Shown in pieces: positions 41,932-49,679 of a DNA stretch of 49,679 bases. Source of the DNA: Endozoicomonas numazuensis (GTDB lineage Bacteria; Pseudomonadota; Gammaproteobacteria; Pseudomonadales; Endozoicomonadaceae); the NCBI RefSeq assembly GCF_000722635.1, contig NZ_JOKH01000003.1, positions 10,690-60,368 on the forward strand. The letters are read 5' to 3'. The position numbers were made by a program, and so were the translations under genes. The notes beneath the pieces are model-generated. The model did not search any database, was not told the DNA's origin, and saw nothing but the letters and a program-made list of their open reading frames with translations. Position 1 is the first letter of the stretch. The number at the start of each line of letters is the position of its first letter.

Positions 41932-42909
41932 TTAAGCAGGCAAGGTAAGAATGACCTTGCCTGTTGTTTTATTCGAAGCCATTAAATCATAAGCACTTTG
42001 ATATTGATCCATTGACATTACCGTATCGACAATAGGTTTTAATTGTCCCTGAGCAAATAAAGGCCAAACCTTTTCCTTTAACTCAGCTAACAGCTTCTCT
42101 TTTTCGGCAATGGGCAAAAAACGCAGTGTCGATCCAATGATTTGAATCCGCTTCATTAAAAGCAGCCCCATATCCAGCTTACCCTTCCGGCCTGCCATTA
42201 AACCAATAGTGATAATCCTTCCCCCGGTATTCATTAGCGACATGTACTTTTCCAGCCAGTCGCCCGCACAACAATCCAATACCCTATCAAAAGGCCCCCA
42301 CTCCTTTAGTGTTTGCCAATCCTGCTGATGCCGATTGATACCATTACAGGCTCCCAGTGCCTTGCAGAAAGCCAGCTTCTCATCACTGCCGACAACCACT
42401 GTGACATCCATTCCAAAATGGGCACACAGTTGAATCATCGCAGTGCCCACACCACTGGCTCCAGCCATGACCAGAACTTTGTCTCCAGGTTTCACCCTGC
42501 CACGATGAAACAGGTTTAACCAGGCGGTGGTATACACTTCAACAATCCCACCTGCCTGTATCAGACTCAATGACTCAGGCACCGGTAACAGCAAGCGCTG
42601 GTCACAAACTACGTCTGTCGCCAATCCTCCACCAGGTAATAATGCACACACTTGCTGACCTGGCAGCCACTGACTGACATTCTCCCCCACGGAGTCAATG
42701 ATACCGGAACATTCCAAACCCAAAACGGGCGTAACACCCTCTGGAGGATTATAGGTTCCAGCCTGCTGAGAAAGATCTGCCCGGTTGAGCCCTGCAGCCA
42801 CAATACGAACTTTTACCTGATCTTTACCCAAAGACTCATTGGGAAAAGACCGCCACTGCAGTGCCTTGTCAATAGCCACAAGTCCGTGAAAGCCTTTGCT
42901 ATCTTGCAT
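41932..42909 (-). CDS. zinc-independent NAD(P)H quinone oxidoreductase (PIG3/QOR type MDR)
   Basis: 325 residues, the usual size. N-terminal GroES-like domain with NRADLSQQAGTYNPPEGVTPVLGLECSG, typical of the PIG3 branch; the Rossmann part has AGASGVGTAMIQLCAHFG for NADPH. Catalytic-zinc cysteine and histidine ligands are lacking, so a quinone or enone reductase is expected. A purine-rich GAGATAAAG precedes the ATG. Stands alone. Confidence 0.9.
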   Translation of the reverse strand: MQDSKGFHGLVAIDKALQWRSFPNESLGKDQVKVRIVAAGLNRADLSQQAGTYNPPEGVTPVLGLECSGIIDSVGENVSQWLPGQQVCALLPGGGLATDVVCDQRLLLPVPESLSLIQAGGIVEVYTTAWLNLFHRGRVKPGDKVLVMAGASGVGTAMIQLCAHFGMDVTVVVGSDEKLAFCKALGACNGINRHQQDWQTLKEWGPFDRVLDCCAGDWLEKYMSLMNTGGRIITIGLMAGRKGKLDMGLLLMKRIQIIGSTLRFLPIAEKEKLLAELKEKVWPLFAQGQLKPIVDTVMSMDQYQSAYDLMASNKTTGKVILTLPA

Positions 42910-43429
42910 CTTTATCTCAAACCTCTGTGATCAAGCCGATACAGGTATCAAGGAAATACCTCTGTTACCTGGCTGTATTAAATGGGAGTTTTACCGTCTG
43001 ACAGCGGTCCCGGCAGAGACCCCTAACTAGCTGCATTCAGGTATAGACTGTATTATGTCCCCGGGGATAATAACAATCAGTGCAGAAAACTGATTGTGAA
43101 AGCCCCCAAAGCACTGGTAACTTAAAAATAGAAGTCAACCAAAGCTTTGGGACGGGTATATGGACAGACTGTCTGGTAGCCATTACAGCTACATGAGCCA
43201 AACGAAGTTTTTCCGGCAATCAAAGCTATGGCAGGCTTTGTCTATTTCCGGTACAGAAAGGGTTTGAAGACCCCCTGTGAATAGTTTGGTACAAGTGTTT
43301 CAGGAACAGTGGGATGGAGTGACCTATAGTCGATGAACGTCGTCTTAAACACCCCGTAACAGAACGTATTCCTGCAAGAGCCGAGGCGGCACACCCGATA
43401 TCGAAAAACGACACGGAGCTTCACAATCC
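42910..43429. other. intergenic region upstream of prc
   Basis: 520 bases with only short, unconvincing frames. It contains a perfect 8-bp hairpin CAATCAGT/ACTGATTG (43074-43096). It must hold the prc promoter and that of the divergent oxidoreductase; I cannot fix either. Confidence 0.45.
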
Positions 43430-45547
43430 ATGATACCGACCCTGCGAAACGCCAGGAAAACACCATCGGTTTTTTTTGCCCTGTTCACCGCGCTCTGTAT
43501 AACCACCAGTTCGGTTTTTGCCGCTGATCAGAAACTTGAGCGCCCGGTCGAAGAGCTCGAGCCCAGCCTGCAGCAGGCCATCGCAAGTGTGAACGTGGTA
43601 CAGCTGTTATCTCGCAATCATTACCGAAAAATAGCCCTGGATCAGGAGAGTGGCGAAAAAGTTTTCCAACGCTATCTTGATCGTCTGGACCCTAACCGCA
43701 GCTTTTTCCTGCAAAGCGATATCGATCAGTTTACCCCTTATAAGGAGAAACTCGACAGCTCCCTTAAAAGTGGTGACCTCAAGCCAGCCTTCGAAATCTT
43801 CAACCGTTACCGGATTAGAGCCGAACAACGCGCTCGCTATATGCTGGCCTTAATCAAGCAAGGCGTGGAAAAGCAAAACCTGAAAAAGAACGAAGAGCTG
43901 ATAGTCGATCGCAAGGAACAGCCCTGGCTGGCCAACAAAAAAGCGCAACGTGACTTATGGCGAAAACAATTCAAAGACAGCGTATTGACACTCAAGCTGA
44001 ACAACAAAACCAATGAAGAAATTGCCGATCAGCTGAGCCGTCGTAACACCAACCTGCTGCGCCGTCTGCACCAGAGTAAAAGCGAAGACGCTTTCCAGAC
44101 TTACATTAATTCCTTTACCGGAATTTTTGATCCACACACCCAATATTTCTCCCCCCAGACCGCTGAGAACTTTGACATAAACATGAGCCTTTCTCTGGAA
44201 GGCATTGGCGCGGTTCTTTCCTCTGAAGACGAATACACCAAAGTGGTCAGTGTTGTTCCGGGTGGTCCGGCTGAAAAAGCAGGCCAATTAAAACCCGGGG
44301 ACAAAATTATCAGCGTTGGCCAGGGCCGCAAGGGACCCCTGGAAGACGTAGTAGGCATGCGTTTGGATGACGTTGTTAACCTGATCCGTGGTAAAAAGAA
44401 AACACTGGTCAGACTGGAGATTATTTCTGGTTCCAGTAAAAGTAGCAGCACTCGTATCTATGAAATTGTTCGGGACAAAGTCAAACTGGAAGAACAGGAC
44501 GCCAGCAGCCGTATTCTGGAATTCAAACAGGATGGCAAAAACAAACGTGTGGGTGTCATAGAAATCCCTACCTTCTACATTGACTTCAAAGCCGCTCAAT
44601 CCGGTGACCCGAATTACAAGAGCACGACTCGTGACGTAAGGAAGCTCCTTGAAAAGCTCAAGAAAGAAAACCTGGATGGACTGGTCATTGATCTTCGCGG
44701 CAACGGCGGAGGATCTTTGCAGGAAGCCAATGAGCTGACAGGCCTGTTTATTGATCAGGGCCCAACGGTTCTGGTTCGTGACAGTCGAGGCCGTACCGAG
44801 CGACAACAAGACCCGGATCCTACACAGGTTTACGGTGGCCCTATGGCCGTTGTTGTTGACCGCTTAAGTGCCTCTGCGTCAGAAATATTTGCCGGTGCCA
44901 TGCAAGACTATGGCCGGGCTTTGGTCATTGGTGGCCAGACCTACGGCAAAGGCACCGTTCAGAGCATTCAACCACTTAACCATGGTCAACTGAAACTGAC
45001 TCTGGCCAAGTTCTACCGTATTTCTGGTCAGAGCACACAAAACCAGGGTGTACTACCAGACATTGCCTTCCCTTCACTCTACGACGGTCGTGACATCGGC
45101 GAAAACAAATTACCCGATGCCCTGCCCTGGGATACCATCGAGCCAATCCCATATCGAAAATATTCAGATATGAAGCCCTATCTGGAACCACTGGACAAAA
45201 AACATCGTAAGCGCACTGACGACGACCCGGACTTCGTTTATCTGAATGAAATGAAAGACTACCTGGCACGCTACGAAAACCAGGAAAAAGTCTCTCTCAA
45301 TGAAGAGAAGCGCAAGCACGAAATCCAGACCATGCGAAGCCAAAGACTGACCATTGAAAACCGGTTAAGGAAAGCCAAAGGTGAGCCTTTGCTAAACAAC
45401 CTGGATGAACTGGAAGAGGCTGAGCAAGAAGAAGCATCGGCCGAAGCCAAGAAGAAAAAGAAAGAAGCAGACGCTTTTATCAAGGAAGCTGGAATGGTGC
45501 TAGTTGATTTAATACAACTAGAAAAGAAACAAACCGCCAGCCGTTAA
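43430..45547 (+). CDS. prc: tail-specific periplasmic protease Prc (CtpA family, S41)
   Basis: 705 residues. Degrades or trims periplasmic proteins from the C-terminus, including cell-wall enzymes. Signal peptide (VFFALFTALCITTSSVFA), N-terminal helical domain, PDZ domain (GIGAVLSSEDEYTKVVSVVPGGPAEKAGQLKPGDKI) and the Ser/Lys protease core: GLVIDLRGNGGGSLQEA, then the nucleophile in DRLSASASEIF and the lysine in QTYGKGTVQ. The C-terminal region is Lys/Glu-rich. A GGAG lies about 12 bases before the ATG. Confidence 0.96.
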   Translation: MIPTLRNARKTPSVFFALFTALCITTSSVFAADQKLERPVEELEPSLQQAIASVNVVQLLSRNHYRKIALDQESGEKVFQRYLDRLDPNRSFFLQSDIDQFTPYKEKLDSSLKSGDLKPAFEIFNRYRIRAEQRARYMLALIKQGVEKQNLKKNEELIVDRKEQPWLANKKAQRDLWRKQFKDSVLTLKLNNKTNEEIADQLSRRNTNLLRRLHQSKSEDAFQTYINSFTGIFDPHTQYFSPQTAENFDINMSLSLEGIGAVLSSEDEYTKVVSVVPGGPAEKAGQLKPGDKIISVGQGRKGPLEDVVGMRLDDVVNLIRGKKKTLVRLEIISGSSKSSSTRIYEIVRDKVKLEEQDASSRILEFKQDGKNKRVGVIEIPTFYIDFKAAQSGDPNYKSTTRDVRKLLEKLKKENLDGLVIDLRGNGGGSLQEANELTGLFIDQGPTVLVRDSRGRTERQQDPDPTQVYGGPMAVVVDRLSASASEIFAGAMQDYGRALVIGGQTYGKGTVQSIQPLNHGQLKLTLAKFYRISGQSTQNQGVLPDIAFPSLYDGRDIGENKLPDALPWDTIEPIPYRKYSDMKPYLEPLDKKHRKRTDDDPDFVYLNEMKDYLARYENQEKVSLNEEKRKHEIQTMRSQRLTIENRLRKAKGEPLLNNLDELEEAEQEEASAEAKKKKKEADAFIKEAGMVLVDLIQLEKKQTASR

Positions 45548-45558
45548 TATAACTATTC

Positions 45559-45579
45559 AGGGCCTGACCATCAGGCCCT
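45559..45579 (+). terminator. terminator after prc
   Basis: A 9-bp stem AGGGCCTGA/TCAGGCCCT with a three-base loop, 11 bases after the stop, followed by TCACTTCTTT. Probable intrinsic terminator separating prc from the integron. Confidence 0.75.
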
Positions 45580-45760
45580 TCACTTCTTTAAAGCGCCCGC
45601 CCTAAAAATAAGTACTTAGCCCTACCCCTCAAGAAAAAATACTGGCACAATGTCGCTCAATAGAATGAATACCCCCAACAAGCAGGAAGCTATTGAGCCA
45701 AGGGATAAGTGCTCGCCAGCTGTTTAGGCAGTTAGAACTCCTCGGGCGGTAGCGTGCCAC

Positions 45761-46720
45761 TTATATTCTGCACAAAGGACTTTTAACAGCGTGTCCACCA
45801 CGATTCAACACATGTGTCTAGATCTGGGTTGTCTTTAAATCTTTGTGTCCAAGAAGCTCCTGAACCGTTCGTATATCGTAACCATCATCCAGCAAATGAG
45901 TGGCAAAAGAATGTCGGAAAGTGTGGCAGCTTCCCTTCTTTTCTATACCGGATAACTCAATGGCTCGTTTTACCGCTCTTTGCAAAGTGCTGTCATCAAT
46001 ATGATGGCGTCGTTCACAGCCATCTCGGGGATCGATTGAGCGCTTGTGGGAACAAAAAAGATATTGCCAGTGCAAGCTTTTTGCATGAGATGGGTATTTT
46101 TTTGCAAGAGAATCCGGCATCCAAACTTCACCAAAACCGGCTTCTATATCGGCAGCATGAAGAAAACGAACTTCGCTTATTCTAGCCTGTAGCTCAGGAA
46201 TAAGCGGATCAGGCAAGACAGTCACCCGGTCTTTATTACCTTTGCCACTTCGAACAAGAATAGCTTTGCGGTTGAAATCAATATCCTTAATACGCAAGCG
46301 AAGACATTCTGTTATACGAAGACCTGAGCCATACATCAGCTGAACCGGTAACTTATGTGCAGGGCTGATTACTGAGAAAATAGCATTCACTTCATGCCGT
46401 TCAAACACCACAGGAATTTTGGTGGCCTTCTTAGCTCTGACCAGATTGCTGACATCCCCCAGGGATCTGCCTAAAACTTGCGTGTATAAATAGTTCAGAG
46501 CATTCAATGCCTGGTTTTGCGTTGAAGTTGCAACCCGACGCTGAACGGCAAGATAAGTCAAAAATTGCCTGACATGATCAGGCCCTAAATCCTGAGGATG
46601 CTTCATATGGTGATAGCGAATGAAGTACTTGATCCAATAACAATACGACTGTTCAGTGTTATAGCTATAGCGCTTCACTCTCAGGGTGTTACGTACTTCA
46701 GTCATAAAAGGAGAAGGCAT
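45761..46720 (-). pseudogene. intI: integron integrase IntI with TAG at the catalytic tyrosine
   Basis: Site-specific tyrosine recombinase that integrates and excises cassettes. 300 sense codons precede a TAG (45818-45820); the frame then continues THVLNRGGHAVKSPLCRI to TAA (45761), which is the normal IntI tail. Visible active-site residues: R135 (GSGLRITE), K160 region (VRSGKGNKDR), H266 and R269 (CHTFRH), H292 (LGHKD). The TAG replaces residue 301, the Tyr that follows KTTQI in the family. The IntI-only insertion is present (SHKRSIDPRDGCERRHHIDDSTLQRA). One base change from TAC or TAT explains it. Without suppression the product lacks its nucleophile. ATG 46720 has GGAT ahead. Confidence 0.93.
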
Positions 46721-46732
46721 GATAAATCCAAC

Positions 46733-46752
46733 AACTGTTATTTTGTACAGTA
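46733..46752. promoter_or_regulatory. LexA (SOS) box of intI
   Basis: AACTGTTATTTTGTACAGTA carries CTGT-N8-ACAG, the LexA consensus. It ends 12 bases before the intI start codon, the usual location in LexA-controlled integrases of chromosomal and mobile integrons. Confidence 0.82.
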
Positions 46753-46970
46753 TTATTGAAGAGAATGCTAAAAATGCAAATAACTCACACGCGGCCTATT
46801 CAGGGCAGCAGTCAAAATGGCATATAGCCTATTGAAAATTAATGACTTTTCGACACACTGAAAAGTTGGGATATATCTCAAGTGAGTGAATTGCCCCTGA
46901 TTTGGGGGGATATGCTGCGTGCGCGCGTAATATCCAATATTACTCGTTTGAGTTTTAATAGCTGTTAGGC
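46753..46970 (+). other. attI region and first cassette junction
   Basis: Non-coding DNA between the intI promoter and cassette 1, where attI is expected. The crossover point is fixed by GTTAGGC at 46964-46970: its complement GCCTAAC opens attC1, so recombination falls between G46964 and T46965. Any cassette promoter Pc must lie in or near this stretch but I cannot name it. Confidence 0.75.
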
Positions 46971-47065
46971 TCAAAGCTCCTCCTATGAAGATAGTAACGG
47001 TGCGCTTTATGAAATTTAAATCTCTAGAGTGATAAGTACATTTTTTATTCTGTAACAGATAATAC

Positions 47066-47719
47066 ATGAGTTACGTCAAAGCTTATTCATCAAAAAAGAA
47101 AAATATCATAGATTTTCTATGGATGTTCTCATTAGCAATAATCACTAACTTTGGTTCTATCTCCACATGGTACCGTGATACGAATAACCCTACGCAAGAA
47201 TATGTTTATATAATTTTGTCAGTCATATTTGGTTTGATTTCATTGATTTTTATCTATGCTGCATTTCTAGCTTTTGTGAAAGTTTTCAAAAGCCAGTCAA
47301 ACTGGTTTATAATAGTTAATTCTAAAAAAATAAAATTAAAAACACCTGAGTCTGAATATAAACTATCCTTCTCGTATAAAACATCTGATATTATAAGGAT
47401 CGAGCGAGATGAGGTAAATAACGGTGGGGATGGTTTAGATGTTTACTGGTATATATACATAAAGAATAATTCTAAAGTTGAGAAAATAAAACTTAATGTC
47501 AAACCTTTTGTTATTGAAAATGTTGTCCATCAAATAAAGAAATTAAACTTAGACAATATTGAATTCATAAGCAAAGACTTTAAAGGGAATATCACCACTT
47601 GGAATTTAACATTACTTGATAGAATAAAAATGAAACTGAGTTTCATAATAGGCATTGCAATCTTAGGCAGCTTTATTCTTCCAGCGTTTCAATATTACTA
47701 TTTAATACTATACAATTAG
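47066..47719 (+). CDS. cassette 1: membrane protein of unknown function
   Basis: 217 residues, A/T-rich compared with neighbouring core genes. Two N-terminal membrane helices (DFLWMFSLAIITNFG; YIILSVIFGLISLIFIYAAFLAFV), a soluble strand-rich middle (WFIIVNSKKIKLKTPESEYKLSFSY, DVYWYIYIKNNSK) suggestive of a PH-like fold, and one C-terminal helix (LSFIIGIAILGSFILPAFQYYY). No family recognised. The stop lies one base before attC1, a normal cassette layout, and low G+C points to foreign origin. Confidence 0.8.
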   Translation: MSYVKAYSSKKKNIIDFLWMFSLAIITNFGSISTWYRDTNNPTQEYVYIILSVIFGLISLIFIYAAFLAFVKVFKSQSNWFIIVNSKKIKLKTPESEYKLSFSYKTSDIIRIERDEVNNGGDGLDVYWYIYIKNNSKVEKIKLNVKPFVIENVVHQIKKLNLDNIEFISKDFKGNITTWNLTLLDRIKMKLSFIIGIAILGSFILPAFQYYYLILYN

Positions 47720-47720
47720 A

Positions 47721-47785
47721 GCCTAACAAGTGCAGGCAAAAGGGACGCCTCACTGCGTTCGCCGCCCCTGCTGCAAGCGTTAAGT
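47721..47785 (+). other. attC1 (65 bp)
   Basis: R'' GCCTAAC and R' GTTAAGT at the ends, with inner arms around GTGCAGGC and TGCTGCAAGC. Closes cassette 1. Differs from attC2 at its internal loop by about one base. Confidence 0.9.
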
Positions 47786-47843
47786 GGCAGGGTGTATAGA
47801 TTGGTTAGTAATCTGAAAGTGCCGTACAAGTAGAAAGAAGAAG

Positions 47844-48092
47844 GTGTGTACCATCTGGCGATCAAGATCAGGTGTATTATCCTTCTTGCAATGCCAGCGT
47901 AAGCAGTATGCTGTTTCTCAATTTTGGGCGGAGCTGGCAAGAGGTTTCAGGTTTTCTTTCCTTGTGCCACGACAGTACAGAGTTCGGAGTCCTTCAGTTC
48001 TGAGCAATAGACAACCATTTACAAGTGCTTTGCTTTTTTTTCTCCTCAGTGACTCTGAATCAGTGCTCAGCAAAAAACAGAAAATAGATTAA
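47844..48092 (+). CDS. cassette 2: weak reading frame, 82 residues
   Basis: The only sizeable plus-strand frame in cassette 2, from GTG 47844 (AAGAAGAAG just ahead) to TAA. It reads MCTIWRSRSGVLSFLQCQRK and is Arg/Ser/Phe-rich with no family. Composition is unlike a typical protein, so cassette 2 may be a non-coding or promoter-bearing cassette instead. Confidence 0.3.
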   Translation: MCTIWRSRSGVLSFLQCQRKQYAVSQFWAELARGFRFSFLVPRQYRVRSPSVLSNRQPFTSALLFFLLSDSESVLSKKQKID

Positions 48093-48167
48093 TCTGCTGG
48101 CGGTGAGGTCAGGTGCCAAAAATATCAATGGAGTCTCGCCAGCCCAACCATCGTAGCGGCCAGGGCC

Positions 48168-48232
48168 ACTTAACAAGTGCAGGCAAAAGGGACGCCTCAC
48201 TGTGTTCGCCGCCCCTGCTGCAAGCGTTATAA
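48168..48232 (+). other. attC2 (65 bp)
   Basis: R'' ACTTAAC and R' GTTATAA. The internal sequence is almost identical to attC1 (one difference, GTG for GCG in the loop), marking both as the local attC type of this integron. Confidence 0.9.
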
Positions 48233-48253
48233 CCCTAAATCAACTTAGTACAT

Positions 48254-48734
48254 ATGGAATGTGTTATGAGAGAAAAATTATTAAAAGATATTCTCATTCA
48301 AAAAGGTAAACTTGACTGTTACTTCGGCGATGAGGTTCCAGTTAGCTTATGGCGAGCATTGAAGAAAAAAATCGAACAATGGCATTTTTGACTTTATAGA
48401 AGAAGCTACAATCTTATCCAACGGGCGCCCAAGGGCCGCTGACATTAAGATCTATGAGCATAGAAATGGTGAAAAGTGGGTTTCAGTTGAAGACAGGCCG
48501 AGAGGTTTAAGCACCTTTGATAAAGAGGGCTGTCCCCCTGGAAATGGCTGGGAGTACTACAAGATTCCCGCTGGAACTATTCTTCCTGAAGAGTTGGCAA
48601 TTGTAAAAGATCAGTATAATAAGCGGTACGATGCAACACACTATACAATCGCACCTGCATACGATATGTCACTTGTTCAATTTAAATCTGCTCTAGCAAC
48701 ATTTGCTGCTGAGTTATTCAATAAGGCTGTATAA
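48254..48734 (+). pseudogene. cassette 3: Tse2-like ADP-ribosyltransferase toxin, frameshifted
   Basis: From ATG 48254 or 48266 the frame reads REKLLKDILIQKGKL to SLWRALKKK and then meets TGA at 48389. One frame over, open from 48363, it continues NNGIFDFIEEATILSNGRP, RGLSTFDKEGCPPGNGWEYY, KIPAGTILPEELAIVKDQYN, KRYDATHYTIAPAYDMSL and ends 48734. The last segments align by eye with Pseudomonas Tse2 (IPDGTDIPPDLKVKQDSYNK, ATHYTI), an NAD-dependent toxic ADP-ribosyltransferase. Removing one A from the A7 run at 48365-48371 (or one T from the T5 run at 48385-48389) restores one protein of about 155 residues. The stop abuts the next ATG (TAAATG). Confidence 0.8.
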
Positions 48735-48950
48735 ATGAAGATTTCAAATACGCTTGCTCCTTTACTAGTCTCAGCAGTTAGAGATGCCATCATTTACCAA
48801 GAAGGCTTTCTAGGCAGCGATACAGTAAAAGATACGACAGATTATGAAGAGCACATAATGCAGTTAGAACAACTTCTTGAAATATTAAAAGAAGAATATA
48901 AAGAGATTGAAGAAGAGGTTGGTTTGCCTTTGGATAAAATATTGAAGTAA
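48735..48950 (+). CDS. cassette 3: putative antitoxin/immunity protein
   Basis: 71 residues, strongly acidic and helical (EEHIMQLEQLLEILKEEYKEIEEEVGLPLDKIL). Its ATG follows the toxin stop with no gap, which implies co-expression, and the pair fills one cassette. Small acidic partners are common for Tse2-like toxins, so an antitoxin role is inferred from position and charge; I do not recognise the sequence itself. Confidence 0.65.
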   Translation: MKISNTLAPLLVSAVRDAIIYQEGFLGSDTVKDTTDYEEHIMQLEQLLEILKEEYKEIEEEVGLPLDKILK

Positions 48951-48955
48951 CCGGG

Positions 48956-49017
48956 TTATAACAAGTGGGTGCAGAGTGACTGCGCCTGCGGCGCAGCACC
49001 TGACCCAAGCGTTAGGT
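48956..49017 (+). other. attC3 (62 bp)
   Basis: R'' TTATAAC pairs with the TTATAA that opens cassette 3; R' is GTTAGGT. The centre CGCCTGCGGCG differs from attC1/2, so this cassette comes from another attC lineage. Confidence 0.88.
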
Positions 49018-49101
49018 TCCAAAATAGGGCATACTTATCATTCCATAAACTCAACTGAAAATTATCCATAAAGCCAAAAACAAACCAAGGATGTACGCAA
49101 T

Positions 49102-49548
49102 ATGATCACTGATGTAATCCAGTATGTTGAAAGCCACCCTCTCGGCACACTCCTGATCACTCTCAGTCTTGCAATCTTCGGTTACTTGCTCCGAGTTAGC
49201 TTCTTCCAAAGGCAAAGAATCAGAAAAAGTCTGGACAGTATTAGTGCTGTTTTCCGTGATGACCTGAATGCCCTGATCGAAAGCGACCTCAAAACTATGG
49301 ACATTCTTAATGAGTCCAGTTTCAACAAGCATAGGTCTGTCATCAGAAATGAAATTAAGCCTCTCGCCATTCATCAGCGTATTCGCCTGAGCAGAGAATG
49401 GAAGCAACTGGCCTACGGTAATAATAAAGAACAAGGCAAGCTTTTGCGCTATGAGCAATATGCTGATTGTTACTCCATTAGTGAGAACAAAAAACTTAGA
49501 AACCTTGCTGTCCATCGTATAAATTCTATCCTTAAAATTTGTGCATGA
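49102..49548 (+). CDS. cassette 4: membrane-anchored protein of unknown function
   Basis: 148 residues: one N-terminal membrane helix (LGTLLITLSLAIFGYLL) then a cytosolic helical region (FRDDLNALIESDLKTMDIL, FNKHRSVIRNEIKPLAIHQRIRL). The pattern of an FRDxLxxLI segment followed by a KHRxxIxxE segment recurs in integron-cassette hypothetical proteins; no function is known. AAGGA lies 10 bases before the ATG and the TGA directly touches attC4. Orientation agrees with the other cassettes. Confidence 0.75.
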   Translation: MITDVIQYVESHPLGTLLITLSLAIFGYLLRVSFFQRQRIRKSLDSISAVFRDDLNALIESDLKTMDILNESSFNKHRSVIRNEIKPLAIHQRIRLSREWKQLAYGNNKEQGKLLRYEQYADCYSISENKKLRNLAVHRINSILKICA

Positions 49549-49609
49549 ACCTAACAAATGGTTCTAAGGGACGCTGCCTGCGGCAGCGCCCTTGAACCAG
49601 GCGTTATGT
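49549..49609 (+). other. attC4 (61 bp)
   Basis: R'' ACCTAAC pairs with the TTAGGT that opens cassette 4; R' is GTTATGT. The loop arms GCTGCC/GGCAGC are visible. Cassette 5 begins at 49604 and its first 76 bases hold no gene start. Confidence 0.88.
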
Positions 49610-49679
49610 CGCAGCAACACATTCAAGCTTTTCTCTGTTGATTGGTCAGTTTTTTTCTGAGGGTTTTTCTGGCCTAGTG

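What the first reader, a model, noticed from the sequence alone, without database searches (positions are those of the whole stretch)
45761..45823. Amber stop exactly at the integrase catalytic tyrosine
The IntI frame is intact through GHKDLKTTQI, has TAG where the nucleophilic Tyr301 belongs, and then continues with the normal conserved tail THVLNRGGHAVKSP to its own stop. A single-base change would give this. A random nonsense mutation hitting that one codon of 320 is unlikely a priori. It could freeze the cassette array, be recent, or be read through by an amber-suppressing tRNA, in which case integrase activity would depend on suppression.
Basis: partly seen in the sequence, partly recalled or inferred. 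Interest (0 to 1): 0.85.

Follow-up and report, generated by a model that had tools for sequence, protein, structure and literature searches.

The report
Recently broken integron integrase gene
In an Endozoicomonas bacterium, the gene for the enzyme that shuffles gene cassettes has a stop codon exactly at its active-site tyrosine; the rest of the gene is well preserved, so this looks like a very young, ordinary gene inactivation of a kind that is common in integrons.

Summary
An integron integrase gene (minus strand, 46720..45761, 320 codons with its stop) has an in-frame TAG at 45818-45820, codon 301, where 80 of 80 relatives have tyrosine; the normal tail follows to its own TAA. The gene heads a real integron: LexA box, attI core, attC-bearing array.

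Best reading: an ordinary nonsense mutation, very young. The gene otherwise evolves under strong purifying selection (dN/dS about 0.06-0.07), and at most about 5-7% of its own branch can have been neutral. No tRNA with a CUA anticodon and no PylS above cut-off was found; release factor 1 is present. Suppression is unsupported, not excluded. Hitting this codon is a 1.5% event (2 of 132 single-base nonsense routes), and a third to nearly half of surveyed intI genes are inactive in print.

The array need not be frozen: the genome has a second, intact, divergent IntI. Ordinary in kind; side observations (repeated intI breakage in the genus, a conserved element behind intI) are more curious.

The parts
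45761..46720 (-). intI frame, 320 codons including the final TAA at 45761-45763
45818..45820 (-). in-frame TAG at codon 301, the position of the catalytic tyrosine
45821..46720 (-). the 300 codons that are translated before the stop
45764..45817 (-). 18-codon tail behind the stop, like that of the relatives (T302, H303, S314, P315 kept)
46735..46750 (.). LexA box CTGT-N8-ACAG just upstream of intI, identical in L181, L183, L184 and L187
46964..46970 (+). attI core site GTTAGGC; similarity to the sister integrons ends at or just behind its GTT
47721..47784 (+). attC-like site of cassette 1
48168..48231 (+). attC-like site of cassette 2
48968..49017 (+). attC-like site (3' part and core) of cassette 3
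49549..49608 (+). attC-like site of cassette 4; the array continues beyond the window
45607..45756 (.). conserved non-coding element behind intI, 87% identical to the one behind the second intI of this genome

Best explanation
This is the integrase gene of a resident integron that was functional until very recently and has been knocked out by one nonsense codon, which happens to fall on the catalytic tyrosine. Translation stops after residue 300 (shown at sequence level). The product keeps the N-terminal domain, the other catalytic residues and most of the catalytic domain but lacks the nucleophile and the last 18 residues, so it cannot cleave DNA (inferred from the known chemistry of tyrosine recombinases). 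Loss of the integrase is probably tolerated or favoured because an active integrase is costly (shown by others for class 1 integrons in Acinetobacter baylyi; inferred here). Cassettes may still be moved in trans by the second, intact IntI of the genome (inferred).
For: Stop and normal tail. Tyr in 79 of 79 loci and in L009. Purifying selection: dN/dS 0.059-0.067 against G001 and 0.069-0.075 against G009; changes unique to the window branch 3 nonsynonymous and 26 synonymous, against 5 and 35, and 7 and 42, on the two sister branches. With a background of 12:77, no more than about 5-7% of the branch can have been neutral at the 5% level. LexA box and attI core in place. Nonsense codons elsewhere in the family fall at unrelated positions: 6 of the 150 matches listed (my count; more were not listed) in 369 genomes of the class have an in-frame stop, one of them this gene; the other five are at query positions 79, 112, 195, 218 and 247. 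The same intI lineage is broken in other ways in other genomes of the genus: split by an insertion with an IS605 OrfB gene in G010, reduced to remnants in G008. In print: nearly one third of intI genes are pseudogenes (PMC2426708, abstract and passages), 43-46% inactive (PMC3108266, passages), and active class 1 integrases lost by frameshift in evolution experiments (PMC3510236, abstract and passages).
Against: The exact coincidence with the catalytic codon (2 of 132 routes) is left to chance. [quoted passage not shown] this fits only if the event is young.
Confidence: 0.83

Rival explanations
1. Sequencing or assembly error: the true codon is tyrosine and the integrase is intact.
For: No reads could be examined. 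The gene shows no other sign of decay. The assembly was error-corrected, digitally normalised and gap-filled (PMC4132622), if the identification with that assembly is right.
Against: No N run in the window. The paper reports about 10 million Illumina read pairs for each of two libraries, i.e. deep coverage of 6.34 Mb (PMC4132622; depth inferred). The nearest other gene of this genome that covers this end of the protein is only 52% identical, so collapsed repeats are unlikely; the truncated copy L181 does not reach this codon.
Confidence: 0.07
2. Read-through or suppression: the stop is decoded at a useful rate and some full-length integrase is made, so recombination is throttled by translation.
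For: Frame and tail behind the stop are conserved and the gene is under purifying selection. A precedent exists: the internal stop of IntI2, whose suppression gives activity (PMC2426708, passage).
Against: No CUA-anticodon tRNA among the 88 found nor in the loci of the pattern scans that ARAGORN examined (30 of 122 hits; 18 of 18 hits); release factor 1 present; no PylS above cut-off; amber codon in 0 of 80 relatives. A young mutation explains the conservation as well.
Confidence: 0.04
3. Selected catalytically dead binder: the truncated protein still binds attI or attC and was favoured because it blocks other integrase activity, for example that of the second IntI.
For: The stop removes the nucleophile and leaves the rest of the protein; a second intact IntI is in the genome.
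Against: The lost tail is conserved in relatives and is thought to serve subunit contacts (recalled), so binding in a proper complex is doubtful. No second example: 0 of the 5 other located stop-bearing genes has its stop here. No functional data.
Confidence: 0.04

Closest known systems
intI pseudogenes of integrons (surveys PMC2426708 and PMC3108266)
   Same: Integron integrase with an internal stop; nearly one third or 43-46% of surveyed intI genes are inactive.
   Different: Here the stop is exactly at the catalytic Tyr codon and the LexA box is still intact.
IntI2 of class 2 integrons with the premature ochre codon at position 179 (PMC8876359, passages; PMC2426708, passage)
   Same: A single nonsense codon in an integrase whose activity is reported to return when the stop is suppressed.
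   Different: Amber, not ochre; position 301, not 179; a cassette array in an Endozoicomonas genome, not a Tn7-type element; no evidence of suppression here.
   Same: Ortholog, 94% identical, same LexA box, attI core GTT and element behind the gene.
   Different: Tyr at position 301, 319 residues; other DNA behind attI; the tail-specific protease gene that neighbours intI in the window was not found in the 16.9 kb examined.

Membership tests
Integron integrase (IntI) | Match to the curated integron integrase model | tested here: met
   TIGR02249 411.7 bits for residues 1-300, cut-off 265
Integron integrase (IntI) | Catalytic R, K, H, R, H residues | tested here: met
   R135, K160, H266, R269, H292 present; which residues are catalytic is recalled
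Integron integrase (IntI) | Catalytic tyrosine in the translated product | tested here: not met
   TAG at codon 301: an intI gene, but not demonstrably a working IntI
Integron integrase (IntI) | IntI-specific patch (additional domain) | not tested
   named in PMC2426708; not mapped here residue by residue
Integron | attI beside intI and an array of attC-bearing cassettes in one orientation | tested here: met
   attI core 46964-46970; 4 attC-like sites in the window, about 20 by pattern up to C3:78.8 kb
Integron | LexA box at the intI promoter (frequent, not universal) | tested here: met
   16-bp box at 46735-46750; lexA at 261 bits, cut-off 110.95; binding itself not testable
intI pseudogene | Internal stop in a frame that is intact in relatives | tested here: met
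intI pseudogene | Relaxed selection | tested here: inconclusive
   branch ratio 3:26 is no higher than in the sisters; fits a very young event, continued use or a base error
Suppressed or recoded amber gene | tRNA with CUA anticodon or pyrrolysine machinery | tested here: not met
   150 of 344 tRNA candidates were scored
Suppressed or recoded amber gene | Amber codon conserved in relatives | tested here: not met
   80 of 80 relatives have Tyr
Suppressed or recoded amber gene | Full-length product in the cell | not testable with these tools
   no protein or ribosome data

The most novel reading that the evidence does not exclude
The amber codon at the nucleophile is a translational safety catch: a truncated DNA-binding form is made most of the time, and rare read-through gives a few active integrase molecules, so that cassette shuffling is throttled by translational error.
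Probability: 0.03. Interest if true: 0.75.

Novelty: new member of a known kind. Interest (0 to 1): 0.13.

Why it matters
As it stands it matters little: one more inactivated integron integrase, unusual in that it seems to have been caught very soon after the event, with LexA box, attI core, array and the other catalytic residues still in place. It adds to the signs that intI of this lineage is lost again and again in Endozoicomonas. If read-through were shown it would matter much more, because the rate of cassette shuffling would then be set by translation.

Tried and rejected
Suppressor tRNA: pattern scans and the Rfam tRNA model over the whole genome gave nothing with a CUA anticodon. Of the 122 hits of the loose pattern (reversed control 362), 30 became loci and were scanned with ARAGORN, without a tRNA. 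The six Rfam hits that ARAGORN did not accept were looked at one by one: Gly-like, anticodon loop with GCC, odd T arm.

Pyrrolysine: only a cross-hit of 27.4 bits, cut-off 178.

Catalytic-Tyr nonsense as a recurrent state: 0 of 80 relatives and 0 of the 5 other stop-bearing genes located from the class survey. One further stop-bearing gene, G636 in the phylum survey, was not located. L066 was dropped because its alignment ended before residue 295; it is included.

attC search by complementarity missed plain sites and returned chance hits; motif patterns replaced it, so the count of about 20 is approximate. Rfam had no match in 42000-49679 at gathering scores.

That the shared break point of intI remnants (about residue 64) marks an IntI-made deletion at a secondary site was considered and left open: the two G008 copies share the same flank and may be one event.

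RNA structure of the element behind intI: consensus fold with 18 pairs and no two-sided change in 6 sequences, so no support for a structured RNA.

Papers: 'Endozoicomonas' with 'integron' gave 4 papers; in PMC4557100 the only occurrence of integron is in the reference list, the other three were seen only in the listing. PMC12491435 has no occurrence of integron, integrase or pseudogene in its main text. I met no report of this integrase in these searches; most subscription journals are not covered.

Full report
What is there. The window is C3:10690-60368 of a 6.34-Mb genome in 31 contigs. Its closest named relative for this gene is Endozoicomonas arenosclerae ab112 (L009, 94% identity). Size, number of scaffolds and scaffold N50 (0.92 Mb; C3 has 917,146 bases) fit the E. 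numazuensis DSM 25634 assembly, from a sponge, described in PMC4132622 (first of two parts of the text read); this identification is inference. On the minus strand, 46720..45761, lies a 320-codon intI frame. Codon 301 is TAG (45818-45820); the tail THVLNRGGHAVKSPLCRI and a TAA at 45761-45763 follow. The 300 residues before the stop score 411.7 bits with the curated integron integrase model, cut-off 265.

The integron. A 16-bp LexA box lies at 46735-46750. It is identical in L181, L183, L184 and L187, has one or two changes in its inner eight bases in the remnants L188 and L189, and is missing in L191. The genome has lexA. Similarity to the integrons of related genomes ends at or just behind the attI core GTT (46964-46966), beyond which each has other DNA, except the second copy L181 in the same genome. 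Behind it are four attC-like sites in the window and, by pattern, about 20 up to C3:78.8 kb, with transposase genes in the array. Of eight array proteins given to Pfam, three had any match at E 0.001 or better; those at L179:12321-13199 (DUF4145) and L179:5039-6052 (ANAPC3, barely) exceed a curated cut-off. None is a resistance family, but not every cassette was scanned. Beside intI lies an intact tail-specific protease gene, 43430-45547.

Is the stop at the catalytic tyrosine? Yes. Position 301 is Tyr in 79 of 79 loci L010-L088, in L009 and in the genome's own second IntI (L003). The other catalytic residues are in place (their role is recalled).

How old is it? Against the two orthologs G001 and G009, dN/dS is 0.059-0.075 by two methods, over 318 codons with the two stop-bearing columns left out. 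Codon changes unique to one branch are 3 nonsynonymous and 26 synonymous for the window gene, 5 and 35 for G001, 7 and 42 for G009. If the sister branches (12:77) give the rate under selection, the window branch can have been neutral for at most about 5, 6 or 7% of its length (kappa 1, 2, 4; Poisson, 5% level). The bound assumes constant rates and rests on small counts. So either the stop is very young, or the gene is still used, or the base is wrong.

Chance. In the intact G001 gene 132 single-base changes create a stop, 2 of them at codon 301: 1.5%. In a survey of 369 genomes of the class, 146 had a match at 1e-40 or better; of the 150 matches listed (my count; more were not listed), 6 contain in-frame stops, this gene among them. 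The other five stops lie at query positions 79, 112, 195, 218 and 247. Nonsense codons in intI thus fall anywhere, and one at the tyrosine is not a recurrent state here. Frameshifts are not counted in this survey. Published surveys give nearly one third pseudogenes (PMC2426708, abstract and passages) and 43-46% inactive integrases (PMC3108266, passages); [quoted passage not shown] In evolution experiments the cost of an active class 1 integrase led to frameshifted intI1 (PMC3510236, abstract and passages).

Suppression. The tRNA model found 88 tRNAs in the genome, with 150 of 344 first-look candidates scored. ARAGORN, run on stretches around them, found 82, none with anticodon CTA and one tRNA-Tyr with GTA; the six others are Gly-like with GCC. 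A stricter pattern scan for a CTA anticodon loop followed by a T loop gave 18 hits, against 30 for the reversed control; ARAGORN found in the 18 fetched loci only tRNA-Glu, -Ala and -Gly genes and two tmRNA genes. Release factor 1 is present; PylS is not, at its cut-off. TAG ends 2 of the 23 longer frames that I picked in the window. There is no special reader of TAG that I can find; ordinary leakiness cannot be excluded by sequence.

Is the array frozen? Not necessarily. A second intI at C6:77108-78055 (L182:11108-12055) is full length, 420 bits with the integron integrase model, and has Tyr; my patterns found no convincing attC site in the 20 kb around it. A second, truncated integron copy lies at C3:807-810.4 kb (L181): an intI fragment, the same attI, the same cassette 1 and one more attC. 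Over 1253 bases it differs from the window at 13 positions, all between 46612 and 46893; the 889 bases from 46894 to 47782, nearly all of cassette 1 included, are identical. This suggests that cassette 1 moved between the two attI sites very recently, by IntI or by gene conversion. Inside the array three pairs of direct repeats are 96.5-98.5% identical; three further pairs are 76-87% and one inverted pair 99.8% identical.

The wider pattern in the genus. Among 11 genomes of the genus, own included, intI of this lineage is open in G001 and G009, amber-stopped in G000, split in G010 by a 1.58-kb insertion with an IS605 OrfB gene, and reduced to remnants in G008. More distant intI genes with an open frame occur in G003, G004 and G007; G006 has fragments. 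The window case fits a genus in which this gene is broken often and by different means.

Verdict. Sequencing error, read-through and a selected dead binder remain as minor rivals. As a discovery it is ordinary.

Noticed in passing
window 45607-45756 and L182:12065-12215: A non-coding element of about 150 bases directly behind intI is 87% identical between the two intI loci of this genome although their IntI proteins are only 52% identical; it is also behind intI in G001 (two loci), G009 and G010. In this genome it was found only behind these two intI genes, apart from one 23-base match. Function unknown; no covariation in 6 sequences.
   Followed up: partly
L181:4362 (C3 about 810.4 kb), L188:4797, L189:3204: Remnant integrons in which intI is cut at the same place (window 46530, about residue 64) once in G000 and twice in G008. 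In G008 the flank resembles (by eye) a 5' piece of a group II intron, and L188 has a group II intron maturase gene close by; in G000 the flank is other DNA.
   Followed up: partly
L187:7033-8607 (G010): The orthologous intI of G010 is split by a 1.58-kb insertion with an IS605 OrfB/TnpB-like gene on the opposite strand.
   Followed up: partly
window 46530-47782 against L181:3110-4362: Cassette 1 is identical at two integron loci while the adjoining intI/attI part differs by 13 bases: very recent cassette movement or gene conversion.
   Followed up: partly
L202 (C15:2866-3182) and L201 (C3:598553-602127): Six 83-base tRNA-Gly(GCC)-like sequences with an altered T arm, 40-43 bits with the tRNA model and not accepted by ARAGORN, lie among normal tRNA genes.
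   Followed up: partly
L231 and L232 (C4:334234 and C4:341233): Two tmRNA genes with different predicted tag peptides in one genome, 7 kb apart.
   Followed up: no
window 43430-45606: The tail-specific protease gene beside intI in the window was not found in any of 9 related loci examined (L183-L191), and similarity to the orthologous integrons ends about 120-160 bases behind the intI stop, so the integron seems to sit in different genomic places.
   Followed up: partly
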